From: Bacteroidales bacterium
GTDB taxonomy: Bacteria > Bacteroidota > Bacteroidia > Bacteroidales > UBA7960
DNA: 37,965 bases
Assembly (NCBI GenBank): GCA_003559475.1
Contig: PWLF01000223.1
Span: 1 to 37,965 of the forward strand
Direction of reading: 5' to 3'
Shown here: positions 1 through 13,171 of the stretch, piece by piece
How positions within the stretch are numbered: position 1 is the first letter of the stretch
Layout: each line of letters begins with the position of its first letter
Translations under genes and position numbers: made by a program
The notes under the pieces: generated by a model
Database searches by the model: none
Told to the model about the DNA's origin: nothing
Seen by the model: only the letters and a program-made list of their open reading frames with translations

Positions 1-944
1 CGGCTATCACAACCTAAGCTTATAGTTCTAATTTTTCCTGCTTCAACGGCGGTTTGATAATTACCAACTTTTGCGCCTTTTTCTGACACCATTACTCTGG
101 AGTTATTAACCATTGCCATGTCAGTAGTTGTGCTTCCAATATCAACCACTAAAGCATTTCCTCTTCCGGAGAGAAATCTTCCACCAATAGCACTGGCAGC
201 CGGACCTGACATTATAGTTTCGACAGGTTTTTTAACTGCTTCGGGTGATGGCATTAAAGTTCCATCACCCCTAACTATCATTAGCGGAGCAATAATATCT
301 AATTCTTTTAAAGAAAATCTTACAGCTTCGATAAAATCCTGCATTACCGGCACTAAAGAAGCATTAATGGACGCAGTAGCAGCTCTTTTGATAGAATCAA
401 GCTTAGTAGATAGCTGACTTGCTAAGACAACAGGTAAAGAAGTAAGTTTATTTATAATCTTGAAAGCCTCCTCTTCATGTTCCGGGTTTAACGGACTGAA
501 ATAACTTGATACGGCAATTGCTTCAATCTCATTATGGTTATCAGAAACCCACTTTTTTATACTTTCTTTGTCTAACTGCTCTAATTCATCCCCTTGAGCA
601 TTATGCCCGCCTTTTATAAAAGCGATATTATCAGAATGCAGTTTCCCTGACAAATCATAATTATCAATTAACTTTTTATCGTAACCAATTAATATTAAGC
701 CAACTTTTCTAGCTTTACCTTCAGCCACAGTGTTTGTAGCTAAAGTACTGGATATTCCGACAAGTTTAATATTATGCTCGGGTTCAATATTTAGTTTTTT
801 TAAAACTTTAATAACTCCAATTTTTAAGTCATTTCTTGTAGTAAGAGACTTTGCAGCTGAGATTACTTTACGAGATACATAATCCAACAACACACCATCA
901 GTGTATGTTCCTCCCGTATTTACGCCTATCATATAACGTCTCAT
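1..944 (-). CDS. Hydantoinase/oxoprolinase (HyuA)-family protein, partial (3' end beyond window)
   Basis: The frame is open from an ATG at 944 down to the left edge (314 codons), so the C-terminus is missing; an alternative ATG lies at 932. The N-terminus has the HyuA phosphate-binding motif GVNTGGTYTDG (residues 7-17). Further along come an MSGPAAS motif and a second ASKHA-type phosphate loop, VVDIGSTTTD. Together these mark the actin/hexokinase-fold ATPase of the hydantoinase A/5-oxoprolinase family. It begins 39 bases after the upstream MttB-like gene stops and is very probably in the same operon. Known relatives hydrolyse cyclic amides with ATP, but no HyuB partner is visible. Corrinoid reactivases of the RamA type also have an ASKHA fold, so a role in reactivating the corrinoid protein, or in opening a cyclic substrate, are both open. 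Family assignment is solid; the substrate is unknown. Confidence 0.85.
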   Translation of the reverse strand, partial: MRRYMIGVNTGGTYTDGVLLDYVSRKVISAAKSLTTRNDLKIGVIKVLKKLNIEPEHNIKLVGISSTLATNTVAEGKARKVGLILIGYDKKLIDNYDLSGKLHSDNIAFIKGGHNAQGDELEQLDKESIKKWVSDNHNEIEAIAVSSYFSPLNPEHEEEAFKIINKLTSLPVVLASQLSTKLDSIKRAATASINASLVPVMQDFIEAVRFSLKELDIIAPLMIVRGDGTLMPSPEAVKKPVETIMSGPAASAIGGRFLSGRGNALVVDIGSTTTDMAMVNNSRVMVSEKGAKVGNYQTAVEAGKIRTISLGCDS

Positions 945-983
945 TGCAAGTTATTAAAATTTCAAAAACAATAATTTAAGGTA

Positions 984-2459
984 TTATTTTTTTTCTTTTT
1001 TTTGTCTTTCTTCAGCTTCCTGAAGTATCTTTTCTATTTCATTGTCGGCTTTTTCAGGGACTTTATTACGAGGACCTTCATAATTTTCAATCAAATCTCT
1101 TGTTTTTTCTATTATTCTGTCTTTCATCGTTTTACTTCCCTGCTCTACCCAGTCTTCATAACTATTTCTATCCATAAGAGAAGGCATCCAATTATCTTTA
1201 AAATGATTCATTGTATGTTCTTCATAAAGGTAATGCCCACCGGGACCAACGTTATTAATTTGATCAATTGCCAACGTCTTTTCATTAACCTCAACACCTT
1301 TTTCAATAATTCTTGCCATTCCAATTATTTCATCATCCATAACAGTTTGAAAAATATCACCTGTTAAACCTGATTCTGTATAACCACAGTCATGAACAAA
1401 ATTTGCTCCACTCATCATGGCTGCATTAATTGATAAACTTGCTTCCATAGCAGACTGCATGTCCATTTTCTTAGTATCTGTACATCCTGCTGTAGAATAC
1501 ATTGGCAGATTACAATAATGAACCATTTCTGTTAGTGCTGCACTTAACAAGCTTAATTCCGGTGCTCCATAAGAATAAACAGAGTATCTCATATCCAAAA
1601 TTGATTGCACTCCGCCAATAATGACGCATGTACCGGGATTTATTAACTGTGAAGCAATTACACCTACCATAGATTCAGACAAAGCAACTACAAGCTGCCC
1701 TGCATGAGATGCAGGGACTGTTCCTCCTCCAATAGCACAAGGACTATATACCTGAGGTATTCTATGTTCAGCACAATATATACATTTATCTATAGCGTGA
1801 AAATCACTAACTAAAGGAGAAATTGGCTCACCATAAAATACATAGTTCGGTCTTTGCTTAAATTCTTCTTCTCCTCCTGCCATGGCAATTCCCATTCTAT
1901 GAATATCATGACACCCTTCTCTTGTAAATGACCAACTCATAATAGGAGTTGTAGTATTTCTAACCATGTCAGCAAATTCATATACATCAGCAAGACCATT
2001 AGTTACATCACTTATAGAACCCAATGACTGAACATATCCAATATTTGGCAGTGCATCACAGACCCTTGCTACTAAAGAAGCATCTTTTCTAAGATATTTT
2101 CTGCGTTCAAGAGTTTCCGTATCAATAAAATTGGGCGGTGTAGGTCCGGGACCAAAATAACTTCTTTTCTTTTCTATAATTATTCTTTTGGAATCATCTC
2201 CATCCCAGGGAAATATTTCTGTAACAGCCGGCACAGTTGATAAAGCATTTAAAATAACTTGAGGAGGAAAATAAACAGTAACTCCATCAACTTTACAACC
2301 TGCCTTTTTAAACAATTCTCTTGCTTTTTCATGGTGTACATGAGCACCTGTATATTGAAGAGTACGCATCATTCCGTTAAAAATCCTCTCTTTCTGATTT
2401 TCAGATAATATTTCAAAATGAGGACTTTGCTGTACCGTATAGTTTGTTCTATTTATCAT
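984..2459 (-). CDS. Trimethylamine methyltransferase (MttB)-family protein, non-pyrrolysine, paralog 1
   Basis: A 491-residue protein of the MttB superfamily (COG5598), full length for the family (about 480-500). These TIM-barrel enzymes move a methyl group from a methylated or quaternary amine to the Co(I) of a partner corrinoid protein. Shared family signatures include YSYGAPELSL, a GCTDTKKMD segment, SGANFVHDCGY and a C-terminal SKTMKDRI stretch. The frame has no in-frame TAG, so it is not a pyrrolysine-dependent trimethylamine enzyme and belongs with the MtgB-like (betaine-type) homologs. It differs from its neighbour where that protein reads FGTGSDLPF: here the text is FGPGPTPPNF, suggesting another substrate. 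The C-terminus is lysine- and glutamate-rich. It starts 58 bases after paralog 2 stops and is followed after 39 bases by the HyuA-like gene. The substrate cannot be read from sequence. Confidence 0.9.
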   Translation of the reverse strand: MINRTNYTVQQSPHFEILSENQKERIFNGMMRTLQYTGAHVHHEKARELFKKAGCKVDGVTVYFPPQVILNALSTVPAVTEIFPWDGDDSKRIIIEKKRSYFGPGPTPPNFIDTETLERRKYLRKDASLVARVCDALPNIGYVQSLGSISDVTNGLADVYEFADMVRNTTTPIMSWSFTREGCHDIHRMGIAMAGGEEEFKQRPNYVFYGEPISPLVSDFHAIDKCIYCAEHRIPQVYSPCAIGGGTVPASHAGQLVVALSESMVGVIASQLINPGTCVIIGGVQSILDMRYSVYSYGAPELSLLSAALTEMVHYCNLPMYSTAGCTDTKKMDMQSAMEASLSINAAMMSGANFVHDCGYTESGLTGDIFQTVMDDEIIGMARIIEKGVEVNEKTLAIDQINNVGPGGHYLYEEHTMNHFKDNWMPSLMDRNSYEDWVEQGSKTMKDRIIEKTRDLIENYEGPRNKVPEKADNEIEKILQEAEERQKKEKK

Positions 2460-2517
2460 GTTCTTATATTTTTTCCTTTTATTAATAAACTCATTTCATT
2501 TAAATAATTAATAAGAC

Positions 2518-3966
2518 CTACGAATGTCTTTCATCAGCGCTTTTTATTACATCTTTCAATTCTTTTTGAAGTTTTTCATCCATAGGTTCAGTTTCATAGT
2601 TATCTAAAAGGTCTTGCGTTTTTTCTTTAACTCTGTCAAGCATAGTTTTAGACCCATTATTTTTCCATGTTTCATAATCACTTCTATCCTGTAATTCAGG
2701 TAAGAACCATTCTTTCCAATGCTCAAATGTATGCTCTGTAGTTACATACTCTCCACTAGGCCCGACTTTTTCAATTAAATCAAGTGCAAGATAATCATCG
2801 TCGGTATTAATTCCTTTACCAAATTGCTTAACCATTCCCATCATTTCCTGGTTTAAGACTAAGCTTTCGAGAGAAGCATTAGTTCCATGGTCTATATATC
2901 CTACATCATGAATAAGGTTAGCCCCTGATAAATAGGAATAAAACAAATTCATCATTTGTTCTGCAGCGGCTTGTTCATCAAGTATTTTAGAATCTGTACA
3001 ACCTCCAGTTGAAAACATTGGTAAATTCAGCCATTTGGATATATCAGTATTAGCTGCTGAAGCTAATGAAAGTTCGGGAGCGCCATAAGAATATGTTGAT
3101 TTTTTCATATCTAGGACTGTTGTAACTCCACCCATAATAAGGGGTGTCCCCGGGTTTTTAAGATGGCATAAAACTATAGCCAATAATGTTTCAGATAATG
3201 ACTGTACAAGCATTCCTGCTATTGTTGCCGGAGCAGTTGCTCCTGCGCTTGGGCAAGGAGTGTACATTGCAGGCAGTTTTTTTTCAGCAGCAAAAAGTAA
3301 TTTTTCAACTGCTGTACGATCATTTTTTAAAGGAGATATGGGTTCAATATAAGCAACAAAAAGAGGATTAAGCTTGAACTCTTCTTCTCCACCTTGAATA
3401 AGACATCCCATTTTCCAAAGATCTTCCAGCCCCTCCCCATCAACACTTGTTAAAACCATTGGCTTAGTACATTGTTCAAGCATAGCCATAAACTGGTGTC
3501 TGTCGTATGTTTGCGGATTAGGAGCATCACTAACAATTCCATGAGACATTAAAAAATCATAATTTGATAATGCATCCACTAATTTAGCAGCATTATTTAC
3601 ATCTTTATAAGTTGTCCTCCTTCTTTCTCCGGTTTTTCTATCATAGGTAAAAGGTAAATCAGAGCCTGTTCCAAAAGCAACTGTATCTTTTTGAATATGA
3701 AGTGAACGTTTTTTATTTCTTCCTGCAAGTGTAATTTTGCTTGGATAATAATTAAGCGCCTCCTCAACCATAAAAGAAGGAATACGAACATTATTTCCTC
3801 TAACTACAGCCTGACTATTTTTAAAAAGTTCTATAGCTCCATCGTGATAAACATTACCTCCTGTTCTTTCAAGCACTTCTAACGCTGCATAGTATATCAT
3901 TTCAATTTGATCATCTGACAGAACTTTAAATTTTGTAGATTTATTTATCTTTTGATTTATTTTCAT
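2518..3966 (-). CDS. Trimethylamine methyltransferase (MttB)-family protein, non-pyrrolysine, paralog 2
   Basis: A 482-residue MttB-superfamily protein, the more conventional of the two paralogs. It carries FGTGSDLPF followed by TGERRR (about residues 98-117), YSYGAPELSL, a GCTDSK segment, SGANLIHDVGY, and a C-terminal SKTMLDRVKEKTQDLLDNYE that matches the same region of paralog 1. There is no in-frame TAG, so it is a non-pyrrolysine (MtgB-like) member that should demethylate a quaternary amine such as a betaine onto the corrinoid protein encoded just upstream. It is separated from that gene by 211 bases containing two hairpins, and from paralog 1 by 58 bases. Order of transcription is corrinoid protein, paralog 2, paralog 1, HyuA-like. 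The methylated substrate is not deducible here. Confidence 0.92.
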   Translation of the reverse strand: MKINQKINKSTKFKVLSDDQIEMIYYAALEVLERTGGNVYHDGAIELFKNSQAVVRGNNVRIPSFMVEEALNYYPSKITLAGRNKKRSLHIQKDTVAFGTGSDLPFTYDRKTGERRRTTYKDVNNAAKLVDALSNYDFLMSHGIVSDAPNPQTYDRHQFMAMLEQCTKPMVLTSVDGEGLEDLWKMGCLIQGGEEEFKLNPLFVAYIEPISPLKNDRTAVEKLLFAAEKKLPAMYTPCPSAGATAPATIAGMLVQSLSETLLAIVLCHLKNPGTPLIMGGVTTVLDMKKSTYSYGAPELSLASAANTDISKWLNLPMFSTGGCTDSKILDEQAAAEQMMNLFYSYLSGANLIHDVGYIDHGTNASLESLVLNQEMMGMVKQFGKGINTDDDYLALDLIEKVGPSGEYVTTEHTFEHWKEWFLPELQDRSDYETWKNNGSKTMLDRVKEKTQDLLDNYETEPMDEKLQKELKDVIKSADERHS

Positions 3967-4006
3967 CTGAATAAAAATTTAATTCTTAATATTTATATAT
4001 TTTTTT

Positions 4007-4068
4007 AATATGATGTAATTTTTACTATCATATTGATTATTAATCATATATTCATTTAATGACATATG
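4007..4068 (-). other. Two intercistronic hairpins between the corrinoid gene and MttB paralog 2
   Basis: Bases 4007-4034 form a long stem: AATATGAT pairs with ATCATATT, and the stem continues inward as GTAA with TTAC past one unpaired T, leaving a 3-base loop. Next to it, 4045-4068 pairs CATAT with ATATG and TTCATT with AATGA around a T. Read in the operon's direction the stems are followed by A-rich rather than U-rich sequence, so they do not look like intrinsic terminators. They may instead be mRNA processing or stabilising elements that set different levels of the corrinoid protein and the methyltransferases. Confidence 0.5.
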
Positions 4069-4177
4069 TTTTATATAATTTCTAATTTATTTATTATACA
4101 AACCATAATTGAACTATTTTGCGATAAAAAATATCTCAAAATAATAGAATAAATTTAGTTAGAAATAAAATATATGT

Positions 4178-4813
4178 TTATTTATTTTGCAAGTATTCAT
4201 TTGTGATTTCAACGGCAGTCCCTGCATTAGGAGCATAAAGATCAGCACCAATTTCATCAGCAAATTCTTCAGTAACAGGAGCACCTCCTATTATAACAGT
4301 AACTTGGTCTCGAATACCTGCTTCTTTAAGGGAATTAATAACTTCTCCCATTCTAGGCATTGTAGTAGTAAGAAGAGCAGACATCCCAAGTAAGTTTGGT
4401 TTATGCTCTTTAACAGCATTGACAAAATTTTCATTAGATTGATCAATGCCTATATTAATAACCTTATATCCTGCACCTTCAAACATCATAGCAGCCAAAT
4501 CTTTACCTATATCATGCAAATCACCTGCAACAGTACCTATAATCATTGTTCCGGCATTACCTATATCATCATCTTTCAACATAGGTCTAAGTACATCCAT
4601 AGAGCTACTCATTGCTTTAGCACAACGTAAAACTTCAGGCATAAACATTTCTCCTGCTTTCCATTTTTGACCAACGGCATCCATACCGGTCAATAAACCT
4701 TGATTAAGTATATCTGCAGGTTTTACGTCATTATTAATTGCTTCTTCAACTAATTTTTTCAATTCATCAGATTTTCCTGAAATTAATGTTTCCGTAATCT
4801 TACTTAAATCCAT
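4178..4813 (-). CDS. Methyl-accepting corrinoid protein (MttC/MtgC family)
   Basis: A 211-residue cobalamin-binding protein, the usual size for the MttC/MtbC/MtmC family. Residues about 1-85 are the helical cap domain (with GEMFMPEVL at 54-62). Residues about 88-211 are the Rossmann-type B12 domain with the lower-ligand motif D98-L-H100-D-I-G103, the SALLTTTMP segment near 145-153 and the GGAPV loop at 176-180. In the family, His of DxHxxG ligates cobalt and the protein shuttles a methyl group from an MttB-type enzyme to a second methyltransferase. It is the first gene of the operon leading into two MttB paralogs, so one corrinoid carrier may serve two substrates. Its promoter lies about 420 bases upstream, leaving a long leader. 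Confidence 0.95.
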   Translation of the reverse strand: MDLSKITETLISGKSDELKKLVEEAINNDVKPADILNQGLLTGMDAVGQKWKAGEMFMPEVLRCAKAMSSSMDVLRPMLKDDDIGNAGTMIIGTVAGDLHDIGKDLAAMMFEGAGYKVINIGIDQSNENFVNAVKEHKPNLLGMSALLTTTMPRMGEVINSLKEAGIRDQVTVIIGGAPVTEEFADEIGADLYAPNAGTAVEITNEYLQNK

Positions 4814-5226
4814 ATTATAAAAATTTATTTTAGTTTATAATTAAATATATAAGCGTTTCTAATAGTTTAAGTTTAACTTATTTTATATAATAAATATTAA
4901 AATTTTATCCATTATAATAGTTACATCATAATAAATAAACCTATACTTTAATCCTTCAAAAATTGTTAAATCATTTTAAATTAGCTTCCATTTTTTAATG
5001 TTCTAAAAATATTAATTAAGAACATTTGGGATGCATGAGGTATATTTATGCAGATCTGAATATTCTGCAAGGCTTGACTAAAAGTCCTGTTTTAACATCC
5101 CGGCTAATATTCATATTAACAAAAAGCTGTAAAAAATTAATCCACAAATATTTTATACCCCACTTTAATCAATCAGCTTTTATAATTGCTATGAAAAAAC
5201 TGCCGTTTGTGACAAATCATTTTTTA
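4814..5226 (-). promoter_or_regulatory. Long 5' leader of the corrinoid/MttB operon with a structured segment
   Basis: The gene-free stretch 4814-5354 holds the promoter described next and a predicted leader of about 410 nt. At its centre GGGATG (5028-5033) pairs with CATCCC (5096-5101). The enclosed 62 bases hold two hairpins: TGCAG (5049-5053) with CTGCA (5065-5069), and GACT (5076-5079) with AGTC (5083-5086). Directly beside the closing stem is a perfect 8-bp hairpin, AATGTTCT (4997-5004) with AGAACATT (5019-5026). The layout is a three-way junction plus a coaxial hairpin. I see no B12 box and no match to a riboswitch I know. It could be a regulatory leader, an independent small RNA, or chance pairing. 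Confidence 0.4.
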
Positions 5227-5232
5227 ATTTTA

Positions 5233-5263
5233 CAAATATACATAACTATTAATAAAAGACAAA
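5233..5263 (-). promoter_or_regulatory. Bacteroidetes-type promoter for the corrinoid/MttB operon
   Basis: On the minus strand TTTG (5263-5260) is followed after exactly 19 bases by TATATTTG (5240-5233), a full match to TTTG-N19-TAnnTTTG. Transcription would begin near 5226, in the space after metF, making the corrinoid operon separately controllable from metH-metF. Confidence 0.65.
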
Positions 5264-5354
5264 TTGCTCAACTATACAAGCAAACAAGTTTTTTAACAAT
5301 TTTTAACAATATGAGTCTTGTTAATGCCTTAATTATAAGCAATTACAAAAATAT

Positions 5355-6278
5355 TTAAGGTGATGGTATATGGGGACTTAGACTTTTTTCATAAAGTTTT
5401 TTAACATCTTTAAAGTCTTGAGATAATGATTCATAAAGTTTAATTGCAGCCATACACCTGTTTAATGTATAAAAATGAATTCCCGGGGCATCATTTTCTA
5501 ATAAATCAGTAGCTTGCTCAAGTGCTAATTCTAATCCAATTTTAGCAACTTCTTTTGGTTTATCTTTATGTGGCTCAAACCTCTTGAGATAGCTAAAAGG
5601 AAAAGTTGCGCCGGTCATTTCTGCAAATCTTTTAATTTGTTTATAGTTTGTTATAGGTATTATGCCGGGTATTACGCGACACTTTATACCCTCTTGCTCA
5701 ACTTTGTTTACAAACTCCCAATAATATTTATTATTAAAAAACATTTGAGTAATAAGAAATTCTGCTCCTGCATCTACTTTAATTTTAAGATTTTCAATAT
5801 CTTTTTCCATTGAAGGAGCTTCTATATGTTTTTCAGGATATGCTCCTGCACCAATACAAAAGTCATATTGTTCTTTGACAAATTTAATAAGGTCGCTGGC
5901 ATAATTAAATCCGTCAGGATTAGGAGAAAGCAATGGTTCGTTTTTAGGCTTATCGCCTCTTAAAAGCATTAAGTTTTCAATTCCCATATCCTGAAGGACT
6001 CTCATATCGTATGCGATTTTCTCTTTTGTAGCATTAACACAAGTATAATGAGCCATGCAAGTAAAACCCAGGTCATTGTGAAATAAATCAACCAAGTCAA
6101 ATGTATTTGTTTGAGTGCAACCTCCTGCACCATATGTAATTGAAACAAATGAAGGAGAAAGTTTCATTAACTGACCTGCATTAATACCAAATTTTACAGC
6201 TGTTAAATAATCACTAGGTGGAAAAAATTCAAATGAATATGTTCTTTTTTGTTTTTTAAAAATTTCTGAAATCTTCAT
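5355..6278 (-). CDS. metF: 5,10-methylenetetrahydrofolate reductase
   Basis: A 307-residue FAD-dependent TIM-barrel enzyme that interconverts methylene-THF and methyl-THF. Family signatures are present: SFEFFPP near the N-terminus with the catalytic Glu at 17, SITYGAGG (46-53), LLRGD with the flavin-contacting Asp at 109, and the C-terminal GIHFYTLN segment. Length agrees with E. coli MetF (about 296). It starts 48 bases after metH ends, so the two form one transcription unit making methyl-THF and then methionine. Because the next operon releases methyl groups through a corrinoid protein, the enzyme could also run toward methylene-THF; that direction is inference. No U-run terminator follows. 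Confidence 0.97.
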   Translation of the reverse strand: MKISEIFKKQKRTYSFEFFPPSDYLTAVKFGINAGQLMKLSPSFVSITYGAGGCTQTNTFDLVDLFHNDLGFTCMAHYTCVNATKEKIAYDMRVLQDMGIENLMLLRGDKPKNEPLLSPNPDGFNYASDLIKFVKEQYDFCIGAGAYPEKHIEAPSMEKDIENLKIKVDAGAEFLITQMFFNNKYYWEFVNKVEQEGIKCRVIPGIIPITNYKQIKRFAEMTGATFPFSYLKRFEPHKDKPKEVAKIGLELALEQATDLLENDAPGIHFYTLNRCMAAIKLYESLSQDFKDVKKLYEKSLSPHIPSP

Positions 6279-6326: not shown

Positions 6327-9300
6327 TTATTTATCATCCATTGCAAAATACAACCATTTTTCTGCTTTTTCTAAATCTTCACCTATACGTTTTGCATAGT
6401 CGTTTACTTGGTCTTTTCCAATTTTACCAACACCGAAATATTTTGAAGCATCATTGGCAAAATAAAATCCTGACACTGAGCTTGCAGGCTTCATGGCATA
6501 TATATCTGTTAATGAAATTCCAATTTTATGTTCTACATCCATCAAATCAAAAAGATGTTTTTTTAAGCTATGATCGGGGCATGACGGATAACCAACAGCC
6601 GGTCTTATACCTTTGAATTTACCTTTAATAACTTCCTCAGGGCTCAGGTTTTCTTTAGGGTCATAACCCCAATATTTTTTTCTAACCTTTTCATGCATAA
6701 TTTCTGCGGTAGCTTCAACAAGTCTGTCAGTAATCAAACGAAACATTATACTCTTATAACTATCTCCATTTTCTTTATAATAGCTCAAATGGTCATCTAT
6801 ACCTATGCCTGCAGTAGCTGCAAATCCACCTAAATAATCTTTCATACCTGAATCAAAAGGGGCTATAAAATCAGCTAAAGACAGTGAATAACCGGAATTA
6901 TCTTTTACGTATTGTTGTCGTAACATAGGTATTTTAGCTATCACATCTTTTCTGTTATCATTTTTGAATATTAAAACATCATCATCTTTAGAATTTGCAG
7001 GAAAAATGCCAATTATACCTTTTGGTTTTATAATTTTGCTTACTTTTATTTCTTCAAGCATTTCATGAGCCTCTTTAAATAATCTCTCAGCTTCACTTCC
7101 AACACGTTCTTTTTCAAAAATTTCAGGATATTTTCCTTTAAGCCCCCATCCATTGAAAAAAGGCGTCCAATCTATATAATTCTCAAGCTCTTTTATCTCA
7201 AATCTATCAAACATCTTTGTTCCCAAAAGCTTTGGTTTTACAGTCTTGGATTTTTTATATTTGTATCTTCTCTTACGCGCTTCTTCGATTGACAGAAACT
7301 TTATTCCACGCCTCTTTAAACTATATTCTTTGCGTAATTTTTCTTGTTTATTTTTAATATTTAAAACAGTATTTTCACAATCATCTTCCATTAGTTTATT
7401 AGTTATTGTAATGCCACTCATAGCATCTATCGAATGTACCACTACACCACTATAATGAGGTGCTATTTTTACTGCCGTATGTAATTCAGATGTTGCAGCA
7501 CCACCAACCAACACAGGAATTTTAATTTTTTTATTTTCCAATCTCTTTACTACTTCTAACATCTTATCAAGTGAAGGAGATATTAAGCCACTTAAGCCTA
7601 TTATATCAGGTTTTTCTTTTTCAACAATATCAACAATCTTTTTGTTTGATACCATTACACCCAAATCAATAACTTCATAGTTATTACACCTAAGAATAAG
7701 AGAAACAATATTTTTTCCAATATCATGAACATCACCCTCCACTGTAGCAAGCAAAACCTTTGTTTTGTTTTTTTTGATATTGGATTTTAATTCTTTACTT
7801 TCTTTTTCAATATCAGGCATTAATATTTTTACTGCCTTATTCATAATTCTTGCACTTTTAATAACCTGCGGCAAGAACATTTTACCGGAACTAAAAAGTT
7901 TCCCAACCTCATCCATTCCTTCCATTAAAGGACCTTGAATAATATCTATAGAATCACATTTATTTTCCTTCTTGTATTCCATTATATCTTTTTCAAGATA
8001 TTTACTTTTACCATTACATAAAGCATAAACAATTTTTTCTCGAGAAGAACTTGTTCTCCATTCTTCTAGCTGAATATCTTTTTTCGTATGTTTTGCTGAT
8101 TTATTTGATAAATCTATAACTTTTTCAGTGGCGTCTCTTCGTCTATTAAGTATTAAGTCTTCAACAGGTCTCCTATATTCCTTAGGAATTTTTTCGTATT
8201 CAATAATTTTTGATGGGTCAACAATAGCAAAATCAAGACCTTGTTTTTCACAGTAATGTAAAAAAACAGAGTTTATTATATTTCTCAAATACTCATTACC
8301 TCTAAAAGCAAAAGAGATATTGCTTACTCCTGCATTAACTTTTGCATGAGGCAAATTATTCTTTATCCATTTAACCGAGTTTATAAAATCAACTGCATAA
8401 CTATTATGCTTTTCTATTCCTGTTCCGATAGTTAGCACATTAGTATCAAAAATAATATCCTCAGGGTCAAATTTAATCTCGTTTGTTAATATATTATAAG
8501 CTCGCTTACAAATTTCAATTTTTCTTTCAAAAGTATCTGCCTGACCTTTTTCATCAAATGCCATTACCATAACCGCAGCACCAAGTTCTTTAATTTCTCT
8601 GGCTTTTTGTTTAAATGATTCTTCTCCATCTTTCAAACTAATATAATTAACTACGCTACGTCCTTGCAGGCATTTAAGTCCACTCCTAATAACTTCAAAA
8701 TCTGAAGAATCAATCATTACAGGAACATTTGCTATATCAGGTTCGGCAGCAATATAATTCAAAAAGATTTGCATATTTTTTTTGGCATCAATCAAGCTAT
8801 CATCAAGATTGACATTTATCATGTATGCTCCTTCCTGAATTTGATTTCTTGCTATTTCAAGAGCATCAGCAAAGTTTTTATTTTTAATCAGGTCAGCAAA
8901 TTTTTTCGAGCCGTTTACATTAGTTTTTTCAGATATTTTTATTAATCCGGTTTTATTTTTAATTCCAAGCGACTGCAGACCGCTTAATCTCATTGTTTGA
9001 GGATTTTTAACAATCCTGCGAGGTGAATATTTTTTAGATATCTCAGCTATCTCATTTATATGTTCGGGTTTGCTACCACAACATCCTCCTACAATATTAA
9101 CAAGCCCATTTTTGCAAAAAACTTCAATCATCTCTGCCATTTCGGCGGGCTTTTGATCATATTCTCCCATTTCATTTGGGAATCCGGCATTAGGATGCGC
9201 TGTAACATTAATATTTGCTTTGACAGATAATCTTTCAAGGTATGGCAACATCTTATCAGCACCAAAAGAACAATTTAAACCAATTGAAAACAAAGAAAAC

Positions 9301-9989
9301 GGAAGCATTGAATTATAAAAAGCCTCTACGGTTTGTCCTGACAAATTTCTACCGCTTTCATCAATAGTAGCAGAAACCATGACAGGAATTTCTCTATCTG
9401 ATCCTTTTAAAATTCTATTAATAGCATATAAAGCTGCTTTAGCATTCAATGTATCAAAAACAGTCTCAACCAATAAAATATCAACCCCTGCTTTAACCAT
9501 TGCTTTTGCCTGGCAATAATATACTTCTACTAATTCATCAAAAGAAACATCTCTATATTCAGGATTCTCAATATCAGGAGATATAGAGGCTGTTTTTGCA
9601 GTAGGACCGATAGTACCTGCAACAAAACGAGGTTTATCATCATTTTGATTATAAAGAAAAGTTACATCCTTAGCTATTTTAACAGCCTGATAATTAATAT
9701 CATGTACTATTGAATGTAATTTATAATCTTTTAAACTATAATAATTAGCATTAAAGGTATTAGTTGTAATAATATCAGCACCTGCATCAAGATATTGAGA
9801 GTGAATATTTTTAATGATATCAGGTTGAGTAATTACCAGTAAATCATTTAATCCTTTTAACGGTACATTATGTTCTTTAAAATGGCTACCTCTAAAATCC
9901 TCTTCATTGAGGTTTTCCTTTTGTATCATAGTACCCATTGCACCATCTAGGACTAAAATTCTTTTATTTATTATATCATTCAAATTCAT
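6327..9989 (-). CDS. metH: Cobalamin-dependent methionine synthase
   Basis: A full-length, single-chain MetH (1220 residues; E. coli 1227) with all four modules. Residues about 1-320 are the homocysteine domain, with zinc cysteines C240, C303 and C304. Residues about 345-620 are the methyl-THF (pterin) domain. Residues about 645-870 are the cobalamin cap and Rossmann domains with D753-V-H755-D-I-G758. Residues about 890-1220 are the AdoMet-binding reactivation domain with the RPAVGYPSCPDH signature (1129-1140). Nothing is missing, so it should be self-reactivating given an electron donor. It transfers methyl from methyl-THF to homocysteine. It heads the unit metH-metF. A promoter match 300 bases upstream gives it an unusually long leader. 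Confidence 0.98.
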   Translation of the reverse strand: MNLNDIINKRILVLDGAMGTMIQKENLNEEDFRGSHFKEHNVPLKGLNDLLVITQPDIIKNIHSQYLDAGADIITTNTFNANYYSLKDYKLHSIVHDINYQAVKIAKDVTFLYNQNDDKPRFVAGTIGPTAKTASISPDIENPEYRDVSFDELVEVYYCQAKAMVKAGVDILLVETVFDTLNAKAALYAINRILKGSDREIPVMVSATIDESGRNLSGQTVEAFYNSMLPFSLFSIGLNCSFGADKMLPYLERLSVKANINVTAHPNAGFPNEMGEYDQKPAEMAEMIEVFCKNGLVNIVGGCCGSKPEHINEIAEISKKYSPRRIVKNPQTMRLSGLQSLGIKNKTGLIKISEKTNVNGSKKFADLIKNKNFADALEIARNQIQEGAYMINVNLDDSLIDAKKNMQIFLNYIAAEPDIANVPVMIDSSDFEVIRSGLKCLQGRSVVNYISLKDGEESFKQKAREIKELGAAVMVMAFDEKGQADTFERKIEICKRAYNILTNEIKFDPEDIIFDTNVLTIGTGIEKHNSYAVDFINSVKWIKNNLPHAKVNAGVSNISFAFRGNEYLRNIINSVFLHYCEKQGLDFAIVDPSKIIEYEKIPKEYRRPVEDLILNRRRDATEKVIDLSNKSAKHTKKDIQLEEWRTSSSREKIVYALCNGKSKYLEKDIMEYKKENKCDSIDIIQGPLMEGMDEVGKLFSSGKMFLPQVIKSARIMNKAVKILMPDIEKESKELKSNIKKNKTKVLLATVEGDVHDIGKNIVSLILRCNNYEVIDLGVMVSNKKIVDIVEKEKPDIIGLSGLISPSLDKMLEVVKRLENKKIKIPVLVGGAATSELHTAVKIAPHYSGVVVHSIDAMSGITITNKLMEDDCENTVLNIKNKQEKLRKEYSLKRRGIKFLSIEEARKRRYKYKKSKTVKPKLLGTKMFDRFEIKELENYIDWTPFFNGWGLKGKYPEIFEKERVGSEAERLFKEAHEMLEEIKVSKIIKPKGIIGIFPANSKDDDVLIFKNDNRKDVIAKIPMLRQQYVKDNSGYSLSLADFIAPFDSGMKDYLGGFAATAGIGIDDHLSYYKENGDSYKSIMFRLITDRLVEATAEIMHEKVRKKYWGYDPKENLSPEEVIKGKFKGIRPAVGYPSCPDHSLKKHLFDLMDVEHKIGISLTDIYAMKPASSVSGFYFANDASKYFGVGKIGKDQVNDYAKRIGEDLEKAEKWLYFAMDDK

Positions 9990-11178: not shown

Positions 11179-12117
11179 ATGAACAAATTATTAGTTATAG
11201 CTTTTGGAGGCAATGCATTGCTAAGAGGAGATCAAGCAGGAACAATACATGAGCAAGAAAAAAACATATATGATACTTGCAATAAAGTTGTAAATTTAAT
11301 AAAAAAGGGATACGATGTTGTAATTGGTCATGGAAATGGTCCGCAAGTTGGAACTGTTTTAATGCAGCATGAAGCAGGGATGCGTTTGTATGGCCTTCCA
11401 AAACAACCTATAGATTTTTGCGTTGCGGAAACGCAAGGTTCAATTGGATATATGATAGAACAGCAGTTACAAAATGTTTTATCCGAACATGGAATAGAAA
11501 AAAATATTGTAACTTTAGTTACACAAGTATTAGTAGATAAAAATGATGAAGCTTTTAAAAATCCAACTAAACCGGTAGGTCCTTTTTATTCAAAAGAAGA
11601 ATCTGACAAGTTAAATAAGGATAACGGCTGGATATTTAAGGAAGATCCAAGAGATCGAGGCTGGAGACGTGTAGTTCCATCCCCTAAGCCTTCTGATATT
11701 CCAAGCTGGCATGCAGTTGAAAAATTGGCTCGTGATGGAAACATTGTAATTACCGTTGGTGGCGGTGGGATACCTGCATATATTGAAAGTGATGGAAAGT
11801 TTTCAGGTATCGATGCTGTTATTGATAAAGATTTAGCATCATCTTTACTAGCCTCTAAGATTAAAGCTGATGAGTTTATTATACTCACTGATGTACCAAA
11901 TGTATGTATTAATTTTAACACACCTGAGGAGAAAAAACTTAAAGAAATAAAATTATCTGAAGCTAAAAAATATCTTGAGGAAGGTCATTTTGCTGAAGGT
12001 AGCATGGCTCCAAAAATAAAAGCATGCATACAGTTTGTTGAAAACAGCAAAAATAAAGCTGAAATTACTGATGCATCACAAATAGGTAAAAATAAAAAAG
12101 GAACAATAATATTTTAA
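11179..12117 (+). CDS. arcC: Carbamate kinase
   Basis: A 312-residue amino-acid-kinase-fold enzyme, the usual length. It shows AFGGNALL at 8-15, HGNGPQVG at 51-58, and VGGGGIP with the following SDGKFSGIDAVIDKDLAS segment, all typical of carbamate kinases. It makes ATP from carbamoyl phosphate and ADP in the cytosol. It sits 52 bases ahead of an ornithine carbamoyltransferase, giving the last two steps of the arginine deiminase pathway, and both probably share the terminator at 13187-13220. Arginine deiminase and the arginine/ornithine antiporter are absent from this window. Confidence 0.96.
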   Translation: MNKLLVIAFGGNALLRGDQAGTIHEQEKNIYDTCNKVVNLIKKGYDVVIGHGNGPQVGTVLMQHEAGMRLYGLPKQPIDFCVAETQGSIGYMIEQQLQNVLSEHGIEKNIVTLVTQVLVDKNDEAFKNPTKPVGPFYSKEESDKLNKDNGWIFKEDPRDRGWRRVVPSPKPSDIPSWHAVEKLARDGNIVITVGGGGIPAYIESDGKFSGIDAVIDKDLASSLLASKIKADEFIILTDVPNVCINFNTPEEKKLKEIKLSEAKKYLEEGHFAEGSMAPKIKACIQFVENSKNKAEITDASQIGKNKKGTIIF

Positions 12118-12154
12118 ATTTTATAATCTTAATTAATTTTTTTAACTTATAATA

Positions 12155-12162
12155 AAAGGAGA
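12155..12162 (+). promoter_or_regulatory. Strong ribosome binding site of the ornithine carbamoyltransferase gene
   Basis: AAAGGAGA ends 7 bases before the ATG at 12170. This near-ideal Shine-Dalgarno stands out because most genes here, as usual in Bacteroidota, have only A-rich leaders. It suggests the second gene of the pair is translated strongly on its own. Confidence 0.6.
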
Positions 12163-12169
12163 AATCATT

Positions 12170-13171
12170 ATGGCTTTCAATTTAAGAAACAGAAGTTTTT
12201 TAAAGTTATTAGACTTTACCCAAAATGAGATAAAATTTTTGCTTGACCTATCATTAGATCTTAAAAAAGCAAAATATTCCGGAACGGAACAGCAAAAACT
12301 AAAAGGCAAAAACATTGCTCTGATTTTTGAAAAATCATCAACACGTACTCGCTGTGCTTTTGAAACAGCAGCATTTGATCAAGGGGCTCAAGTTTCATAT
12401 CTTGGACCTTCAGGTAGCCAAATAGGTCATAAAGAATCTATGAAAGACACTGCAAGAGTTTTAGGACGCATGTATGATGGTATTGAATACAGAGGGTTTG
12501 GTCAATCTGTAGTGGAAGAATTGGCAGAGTACTCAAATGTACCTGTTTGGAATGGCTTAACCGATGAATATCACCCAACTCAAATATTAGCAGATTTTTT
12601 GACAATGATGGAACATTCTGATAAACCATTAAACAAAATGTCTTTTTGCTATATGGGTGATGCTCGCAACAACGTTGGAAATTCACTTATGGTAGGAGCT
12701 GCAAAAATGGGAATAGATTTTAGAGCAGCAGCACCAAAATCTGTACAACCAAATGAAAAGCTTGTTGCTGAATGCAAAGAAATAGCTAAACAAACCGGCG
12801 CTAAAATCACTATCACTGACAATGTTGATGAAGCAGTAAAAGGCGTTGACTTTATATATACTGATGTTTGGGTCTCAATGGGAGAGCCCGATGAAGTATG
12901 GGAAGAAAGAATAAAATTGCTAAAACCATATCAGGTAAATATGGACGTTATCAAAAAAACCGGCAATTCAAAAGTTAAATTTTTGCACTGCTTACCGGCA
13001 TTTCATAATCGTGAAACTACTGTAGGCGAAGAGATATTCCAAAAATTCGGACTTGATGGTATGGAGGTTACTGAAGATGTTTTCGAGTCAGAGCATTCAA
13101 TTGTTTTTGATCAGGCAGAAAACCGACTTCATACAATTAAAGCTATTATGGTAGCAACATTAGGAAGTTAA
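12170..13171 (+). CDS. arcB: Ornithine carbamoyltransferase, probably catabolic
   Basis: A 333-residue aspartate/ornithine carbamoyltransferase-family protein. Carbamoyl-phosphate binding is by S57-T-R-T-R61 and H135-P-T-Q138. The ornithine loop DVWVSMG is at 232-238 and H273-C-L-P276 carries the catalytic Cys. The SMG loop argues for ornithine rather than putrescine or N-acetylornithine as the amine. Length and flow of motifs match ArcB/ArgI. Standing after carbamate kinase, it most likely runs phosphorolysis of citrulline to ornithine and carbamoyl phosphate, though a biosynthetic role cannot be excluded from sequence. It is followed by a strong intrinsic terminator. Confidence 0.93.

What the first reader, a model, noticed from the sequence alone, without database searches (positions are those of the whole stretch)
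1..5263. A corrinoid demethylation operon with two MttB paralogs in a Bacteroidota-type genome
One corrinoid protein (DLHDIG motif) is followed by two full-length MttB-superfamily enzymes without amber codons and a HyuA-like protein, under one promoter of Bacteroidetes type. Such systems are best known from archaea, Firmicutes and Deltaproteobacteria. Next door is metH-metF, and fhs lies at the other end, so the genes for feeding methyl groups into folate C1 metabolism are close. Two MttBs with one carrier suggests two substrates or a two-step demethylation. Seen: gene order and motifs. Inferred: pathway and substrates.
Basis: partly seen in the sequence, partly recalled or inferred. Interest (0 to 1): 0.75.

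Follow-up and report, generated by a model that had tools for sequence, protein, structure and literature searches.

The report
B12-dependent betaine-building operon
Salt-lake bacteria appear to run a vitamin-B12 methyl-transfer system, known so far for stripping methyl groups off betaine-like compounds, in the opposite direction, to put methyl groups onto glycine and make the salt-protectant glycine betaine.

Summary
The genes are as described: metH, metF, a corrinoid protein (CorP), two non-pyrrolysine MttB homologues and a HyuA-like gene. The operon is cut at window base 1, a contig end. In relatives it continues HyuA–DUF1638–MeTr–SDMT–AhcY–MetK–PfkB; the window's own genome has SDMT C-terminus–AhcY–MetK–PfkB on another contig. 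SDMT (sarcosine/dimethylglycine N-methyltransferase) is a betaine-synthesis enzyme, so "demethylation operon" is probably the wrong direction. In three genome samples, all 16 SDMT-bearing genomes have GSMT (the SAM-dependent glycine methyltransferase) or this MttB module: 6 GSMT (3 of them not searched for MttB), 7 module without GSMT, 3 both. Canonical clusters read MetK–AhcY–GSMT–SDMT; here the corrinoid module takes GSMT's place. Proposed route: CH3-THF → MeTr → corrinoid → MttB1/MttB2 → glycine → sarcosine → dimethylglycine; SDMT adds the last methyl from SAM. Both MttBs carry Cys, Cys, His where pyrrolysine-MttB has Met249, Pyl334, Tyr364: a possible zinc site for an amine with a free lone pair. 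Direction and substrates are inferred, not shown; more distant relatives beside transporters look catabolic. My ten literature searches listed no description of this arrangement.

The parts
6327..9989 (-). metH, cobalamin-dependent methionine synthase, full length with activation domain
   Evidence: PRK09490 1701 bits, cutoff 1497; a second metH-like gene, cut by a contig end, lies elsewhere in the genome (L067)
5355..6278 (-). metF, methylenetetrahydrofolate reductase (makes CH3-THF)
   Evidence: TIGR00676 301 bits, cutoff 293.7
4814..5354 (.). 541-base gap; Bacteroidetes-type promoter-like site (TTTG-N19-TATATTTG) starting 450 bases before corP on the minus strand; stretch alike in L003 and L006
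   Evidence: no Rfam match
4178..4813 (-). corP, corrinoid carrier protein (MtgC/MtbC-like), DLHDIG motif
2518..3966 (-). mttB1, non-Pyl MttB-superfamily methyltransferase; C238/C323/H353 at MttB positions Met249/Pyl334/Tyr364
2901..3000 (-). Rfam PYLIS_3 match; Cys TGT where the family has UAG; read as conserved mttB coding sequence
984..2459 (-). mttB2, paralogue (41% identical to MttB1); C241/C326/H356 at the same positions
3..944 (-). hyuA-like ASKHA-fold protein, truncated by the contig end (about 660-700 aa in relatives)

Best explanation
A glycine-betaine biosynthesis operon in which a cobalamin module stands in for the SAM-dependent glycine methyltransferase GSMT. MetF makes CH3-THF. 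MeTr (downstream in relatives; expected in the assembly gap here) moves the methyl to Co(I) of CorP. MttB1 and MttB2 pass it from methyl-Co(III) to the amine of glycine and then sarcosine, possibly with the amine held on a Cys-Cys-His zinc site. SDMT adds the last methyl, making the quaternary amine from SAM, which MetH, MetK, AhcY and PfkB recycle. HyuA-like and DUF1638 proteins (plus RamA in Desulfobacterota) are proposed to reactivate the corrinoid. Shown: gene content, order, co-occurrence, GSMT absence from most of these genomes, pocket residues by alignment. Inferred: direction, substrates, which MttB does which step, zinc, reactivation.
For: Operon continuation in relatives: HyuA, DUF1638, MeTr (PRK07535, 337 bits, cutoff 259), SDMT (NF041675, 381 bits, cutoff 550), AhcY, MetK, PfkB. 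Own contig C201 = SDMT C-terminus-AhcY-MetK-PfkB-BtuF-like. Own order: SDMT in 8 of 198 genomes (two weak hits at 83-87 bits not counted), and all 8 have MttB1 or, in G013 and G118, a fragment of it at a contig end; GSMT in 3 of the 8 and in no other of the 198. 36 relatives: SDMT in 31, GSMT in 5 of those 31. All 16 SDMT genomes of three samples have GSMT or the module (MttB not searched in three of them). One operon (L072) has the module plus SDMT-GSMT-SDMT-AhcY-MetK. SerA follows MeTr in L017 and L026. SDMT substrate residues Asp, His, Pro, Met named in PMC3176816 are conserved in every row that covers them: Asp/His 41 of 41, Pro/Met 42 of 42, GSMT-paired SDMTs included. That paper's kinetic table gives no glycine values for SDMTs. 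Cys-Cys-His in 33 of 33 MttB1 and 29 of 29 MttB2 rows. The genome has no third MttB, so no MtgB. Energetics (recalled standard values, my estimate): CH3-THF to an amine is about -25 kJ/mol.
Against: No assay or expression data. MttB enzymes I know of act as demethylases. More distant module members sit beside transporters without SDMT: L035 (MFS, an MtgB homologue) and L032 (TRAP), genomes G230 and G227 without SDMT at 1e-30; they share the Cys-Cys-His residues, so the pocket does not mark direction. L159 (G510) has MttB1-like-HyuA-MeTr in a genome without an SDMT match at 1e-60. Three of 33 genomes with close MttB1 (69% or more) lack SDMT (assemblies of 1.3-2.1 Mb). Three genomes of the order have GSMT as well as the module. 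SDMT scores are under NF041675's curated cutoff of 550 bits, as are those of SDMTs paired with GSMT. Own MeTr, DUF1638 and most of SDMT fall in an assembly gap and were not seen. Betaine importers and betaine- or sarcosine-degrading genes were not searched for in the genome. A trifunctional SDMT is not excluded.
Confidence: 0.64

Rival explanations
1. First-reader model: MttB1 and MttB2 demethylate quaternary or tertiary amines (betaine, then dimethylglycine) and feed methyl groups via CorP and MeTr into THF for energy or methionine. SDMT is a neighbour used at other times.
For: All characterised family members I know of are demethylases. L035 and L032 relatives are beside transporters. MetH/MetF adjacency also fits methyl use. 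MtgBCD, with DUF1638 and RamA raised on betaine, is reported to demethylate betaine in marine bacteria (PMC12478193, passages).
Against: Among the proteins of SDMT-linked operons that I scanned the only transporter genes are of the B12/iron-chelate importer type (not every neighbour was scanned); no MtgB in the genome; a co-operonic betaine synthase would make a futile cycle; leaves SDMT without a source of sarcosine in the 26 of 36 genomes with SDMT and no GSMT.
Confidence: 0.13
2. Methyl-salvage model: the MttBs take methyl groups from environmental methylated amines to charge THF and SAM, and an unusual SDMT performs all three methylations of glycine. The operon makes betaine, but the module works in the demethylating direction.
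For: Explains SDMT, MetK, AhcY and MetH together; trifunctional GSDMT-type enzymes exist (PMC3176816 passages); MeTr-type enzymes are reversible (recalled).
Against: SDMT substrate residues match ordinary SDMTs, for which that paper's table gives no glycine values; GSMT and the module largely alternate among SDMT genomes (3 of 16 have both), as expected of functional substitutes; no amine transporter recognised among the operon proteins scanned.
Confidence: 0.14
3. Reversible betaine buffer: the same genes make betaine under salt stress and demethylate it on dilution, with MttB1/MttB2 working both ways on the dimethylglycine/sarcosine/glycine series.
For: L035 couples MttB1-MttB2-HyuA with an MtgB homologue and an MFS transporter, as if for complete demethylation; the chemistry is in principle reversible.
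Against: No enzyme of MtgB type to remove the first methyl of betaine in the window genome (only two MttBs); demethylation of tertiary or secondary amines to THF is estimated uphill.
Confidence: 0.07

Closest known systems
MtgB-MtgC-MtgA glycine betaine methyltransferase system of Desulfitobacterium hafniense, and MtgBCD of marine roseobacters
   Same: MttB-superfamily enzyme without Pyl, MtgC-like corrinoid protein, folate methyltransferase, DUF1638/RamA reactivation genes
   Different: MttB1 and MttB2 form clades apart from MtgB (quick tree with long branches); the pocket has Cys-Cys-His, not Leu-Leu-His; folate enzyme is MeTr/AcsE-type (PF00809), where the D. hafniense MtgA is reported to lack sequence identity with known structures; operon joined to betaine synthesis genes; proposed direction opposite
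Canonical SAM-dependent betaine synthesis cluster (MetK-AhcY-GSMT-SDMT, e.g. Methanohalophilus portucalensis)
   Same: SDMT, AhcY and MetK (PfkB added) in one operon, in salt-lake organisms
   Different: GSMT replaced by CorP-MttB1-MttB2-HyuA-DUF1638-MeTr; first methylation(s) predicted from CH3-THF through B12
Pyrrolysine MttB-MttC trimethylamine system
   Same: Same fold family (PF06253) and kind of corrinoid partner; PYLIS_3 Rfam model still matches mttB1
   Different: Cys at the Pyl position; 417 and 363 bits against a TIGR02369 cutoff of 525
MeTr (AcsE) of the Wood-Ljungdahl pathway
   Same: PRK07535 family over cutoff, moves methyl from CH3-THF to a corrinoid protein
   Different: Proposed to serve CorP in a betaine operon, not CoFeSP/ACS; far below the CODH/ACS subunit model NF040758 (154 bits, cutoff 370)
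Acetone carboxylase / hydantoinase A / caprolactamase alpha subunits
   Same: Predicted ASKHA fold of HyuA-like protein
   Different: No HyuB-type partner among the operon proteins scanned; associated with corrinoid methyltransferases

Membership tests
MttB superfamily (PF06253) | Profile match over curated cutoff | tested here: met
   341 and 290 bits, cutoff 25
Pyrrolysine trimethylamine methyltransferase (TIGR02369) | In-frame amber/Pyl at position 334 and score over 525 | tested here: not met
   Cys codon TGT in mttB1, Cys326 in MttB2; 417 and 363 bits
Glycine betaine methyltransferase MtgB | Groups with MtgB in a tree; same pocket | tested here: not met
   Separate clades, SH-aLRT 100, quick tree with long branches; Leu248/Leu333 of 2QNE are Cys/Cys
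Glycine betaine methyltransferase MtgB | Demethylates glycine betaine | not testable with these tools
   needs enzyme assay
SAM-dependent betaine synthesis from glycine | SDMT with conserved substrate residues | tested here: met
   own 124-aa C-terminal fragment at 162 bits; 30 of 36 relatives at 359-434 bits, G229 at 195, five without; Asp/His/Pro/Met conserved, Pro/Met also in the own fragment; all below NF041675's 550-bit cutoff
SAM-dependent betaine synthesis from glycine | GSMT (NF051855) | tested here: not met
   no match in G000 (93.8% complete); present in 5 of 36 relatives
Corrinoid methyltransferase three-component system | Corrinoid carrier with D-x-H-x-x-G | tested here: met
   DLHDIG at residue 98
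Corrinoid methyltransferase three-component system | Methyl-corrinoid:THF methyltransferase | tested here: inconclusive
   MeTr in the operon of relatives; own copy would lie in the assembly gap; only two PF00809 matches in G000, in metH and a metH-like gene; MtrH/MtgA type not searched
Corrinoid methyltransferase three-component system | RamA-type reductive activase | tested here: not met
   PF14574 absent from G000; present in the Desulfobacterota operons L017, L026, L028, L036
Zinc-dependent methyltransferase | Zn bound by Cys/His at the substrate site | not testable with these tools
   Cys-Cys-His invariant in 33 of 33 and 29 of 29 rows at pocket positions; no structure of these proteins

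The most novel reading that the evidence does not exclude
A SAM-sparing, B12-dependent route to glycine betaine: MttB-superfamily enzymes, thought of as demethylases, methylate glycine and sarcosine with CH3-THF-derived methyl groups on a Cys2His zinc site, and have replaced GSMT in anaerobic salt-lake Bacteroidales and Desulfobacterota.
Probability: 0.55. Interest if true: 0.88.

Novelty: new variant of a known kind. Interest (0 to 1): 0.76.

Why it matters
Betaine is a major compatible solute in saline habitats, and making it from glycine costs three SAM. A route that takes one or two methyls straight from CH3-THF through B12 would be cheaper for anaerobes. It would be, to my knowledge, the first anabolic use of the MttB superfamily, and would tie salt tolerance to vitamin B12 supply (importer genes of B12/iron-chelate type adjoin the operon in several relatives). 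It would also caution against reading every mttB in a metagenome as methylamine or betaine degradation.

Tried and rejected
Pyrrolysine: rejected; no amber, Cys codon at the site. The window's own DUF1638/MeTr: MeTr not found, contig break; their place is inferred from relatives and from contig C201, and the contigs were not joined. A known riboswitch before corP: no Rfam match to E 5; the leader is alike only in window, L003 and L006, and L031/L043 have a TTG-N19-TACCTTTG variant. DUF1638 fold: confident model (pLDDT 89), no PDB match at E 0.001. HyuA as substrate enzyme: kept open; the fold resembles ATP-dependent carboxylase/hydantoinase alpha subunits, and the corrinoid activator RACo appears only as a weak ASKHA match. 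MttB-linked SDMTs as one clade: rejected as labelled (AU p 0.003), apparently because a second SDMT copy (L070) sits inside; I had also mislabelled G013's SDMT (L068) as linked. L110's SDMT was re-read from tblastn coordinates because the long ORF overran GSMT. AlphaFold jobs went to HyuA and DUF1638, so the pocket of MttB1/2 rests on alignment to the published MttB structure (PMC9842639 passages). Weak NF041675 hits in G089 and G098 (87, 83 bits) and the distant MttBs of G052 and G131 (about 28% identical) were left out of counts. Loci L039-L043 were not in the 36-genome counts. Five of the 36 repeat genomes of the order sample (G204=G051, G205=G130, G206=G150, G208=G160, G228=G118, judged by identical hit coordinates), so those two counts overlap. 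A naive chance of 2e-14 for the 8-of-8 overlap ignores relatedness and shared operons and is not used. No paper recognised as describing B12-dependent glycine methylation or MttB in betaine synthesis (searches; listings, partly capped); most subscription journals and bioRxiv are not held.
Full report
What is there. The six genes named or implied by the finding are present on the minus strand: metH, metF, a corrinoid protein (CorP), mttB1, mttB2 and a HyuA-like gene. The last is cut because window base 1 is a contig end (window = G000:C30:1-37965). Neither mttB has an in-frame amber. Rfam's PYLIS_3 model matches inside mttB1, but the UAG of the family is UGU here, so I read the match as conserved mttB coding sequence.

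The rest of the operon. A scan of named genomes gave 41 loci. In 34 of them the best segment is 69-89% identical to MttB1; their titles say Bacteroidales/Bacteroidetes (one Balneolales), Desulfobacterales/Desulfobacteraceae or Desulfonatronospira. The other seven (47-58%) are from other groups or unplaced. The sample prefixes B1Sed10, CSSed10, T1Sed and T3Sed10 are soda-lake sediment samples in PMC6146748 (passages); other habitats are recalled from isolate names. In Bacteroidales the order is [MetH-MetF]-CorP-MttB1-MttB2-HyuA-DUF1638-MeTr-SDMT-AhcY-MetK-PfkB, with variants. In Desulfobacterales SDMT precedes CorP, and HyuA is followed by an ACT-domain protein, RamA, DUF1638, MeTr and SerA in the two loci that reach that far, L017 and L026; in Desulfonatronospira L028 SDMT comes last. 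Importer genes of the B12/iron-chelate type adjoin the operon in L004, L007, L008 and L012 and in the own contig C201; the B12 models are among their best NCBIfam matches, but all under curated cutoffs. SDMT lies in the fetched stretch of 25 of 41 loci. The window's genome has on contig C201 the SDMT C-terminus at the contig end followed by AhcY, MetK, PfkB and a BtuF-like gene, so its operon is very probably the same, split by an assembly gap.

Co-occurrence. In 198 genomes of the order, SDMT (NF041675; two weak hits not counted) is in 8, and all 8 have MttB1. Two of those are fragments: in G013 a contig ends MetH-MetF-CorP-first 51 residues of MttB1, and in G118 a contig starts inside MttB1. 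GSMT (NF051855) is in 3 of the 198, all among these 8. In 36 genomes behind loci L003-L038, SDMT is in 31 (one weak, G229) and GSMT in 5 of those 31. Five lack SDMT: G222, G226 and G231 (assemblies of 1.3-2.1 Mb), and G227 and G230, whose MttB1 is 58% and 53% identical. In 297 Desulfobacterota genomes SDMT is in 5: G212 and G213 have MttB1 at 73% and 72% and no GSMT; G285, G403 and G427 have GSMT next to SDMT and no MttB1 at 1e-100. In 395 Bacteroidota genomes SDMT passes 1e-60 in 3, all with GSMT adjacent. MttB was not searched through those three genomes, and G000's fragment falls under this threshold. So 16 of 16 SDMT genomes from these samples have GSMT or the module: 6 GSMT, 7 module, 3 both. 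Genomes are not independent, so I give no probability for this pattern. In L072 the module, SDMT, GSMT, a second SDMT, AhcY and MetK stand in one row.

Why synthesis. The canonical cluster is MetK-AhcY-GSMT-SDMT (PMC3176816 passages; L110), and here the corrinoid module takes the GSMT place. The SDMT substrate residues named in that paper are conserved in all 41 (Asp, His) or 42 (Pro, Met) rows that cover them, and its table gives no glycine values for SDMTs. The 26 of 36 genomes with SDMT but no GSMT match would therefore lack the glycine-to-sarcosine step unless MttB1/2 supply it. MeTr carries the motifs I recall for MeTHF binding (positions; the assignment is recalled). My estimate from recalled standard free energies is about -25 kJ/mol for CH3-THF to an amine, against an uphill demethylation of secondary and tertiary amines; quaternisation is left to SAM.

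Pocket. The published MttB structure places Met249, Pyl334 and Tyr364 around the substrate site (PMC9842639 passages). By alignment these positions are Cys, Cys, His in 33 of 33 MttB1 and 29 of 29 MttB2 rows; MtgB has Leu, Leu, His. Zinc would suit an amine with a free lone pair, not a quaternary amine. This is inference; no structure of these proteins was made.

Against. L035 has CorP-MttB1-MttB2-HyuA beside an MFS transporter, an RpiR-type regulator gene and an MtgB homologue (52% to 2QNE) in a genome without SDMT; L032 has CorP-MttB1 beside a TRAP transporter. Their MttB1s carry the same Cys and His residues. They look catabolic. I read L035 as MtgB doing betaine to dimethylglycine and MttB1/2 the next two removals, which supports the substrate series but shows that the enzymes may run either way. 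L159 (G510) has MttB1-like-HyuA-MeTr in a genome without an SDMT match. Betaine importers, MtgA/MtrH and betaine or sarcosine catabolism were not searched for in the own genome.

Reactivation. G000 has no RACo_C_ter match. DUF1638 and RamA are predicted corrinoid-recharging proteins in PMC12478193 (passages). HyuA-like is predicted (pLDDT 82) to have the fold of ATP-dependent hydantoinase/acetone carboxylase subunits. I propose HyuA plus DUF1638 as the Bacteroidales reactivation pair; untested.

Literature. Searches listed no paper that I could recognise as describing B12-dependent glycine methylation or an MttB-SDMT operon. Papers were seen as listings, except PMC12478193, PMC9842639, PMC3176816, PMC6146748 and PMC7857596 (passages) and PMC7154762 (first of two parts of the text).

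Noticed in passing
window 2901-3000 (-): Rfam PYLIS_3 rings over its gathering score in an mttB without amber codon (TGT at the Pyl site); the model may respond to coding conservation rather than to Pyl insertion.
   Followed up: partly
L035 9217-19257: CorP-MttB1-MttB2-HyuA-MFS transporter-MttB3 with a convergent MtgB homologue (52% to 2QNE) on the other strand and an RpiR-type regulator upstream: candidate for complete demethylation of betaine to glycine.
   Followed up: partly
window 4836-5345 (-): Leader between metF and corP alike in L003 and L006 (nhmmer) with no Rfam match; possible unknown regulatory RNA or conserved 5' UTR.
   Followed up: partly
L067 (own genome, contig C4): Second metH-like gene, cut at a contig end, so the metH of the window may be a dedicated copy.
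   Followed up: partly
window 11179-13171 (+): Carbamate kinase and ornithine carbamoyltransferase side by side, as in citrulline/arginine fermentation.
   Followed up: no
L147 (G229, Syntrophomonadaceae): SDMT-like (195 bits)-PfkB-AhcY cluster with SerA nearby in a Bacillota genome that also has MttB1/MttB2-like genes and no GSMT match: possible third phylum with the system.
   Followed up: partly
L011 17601-20699, L029 17618-20672: DMSO-reductase-type molybdoenzyme and iron-sulfur subunit (scanned in L011; homologues in L029) follow SDMT where AhcY/MetK stand in other Bacteroidales.
   Followed up: no
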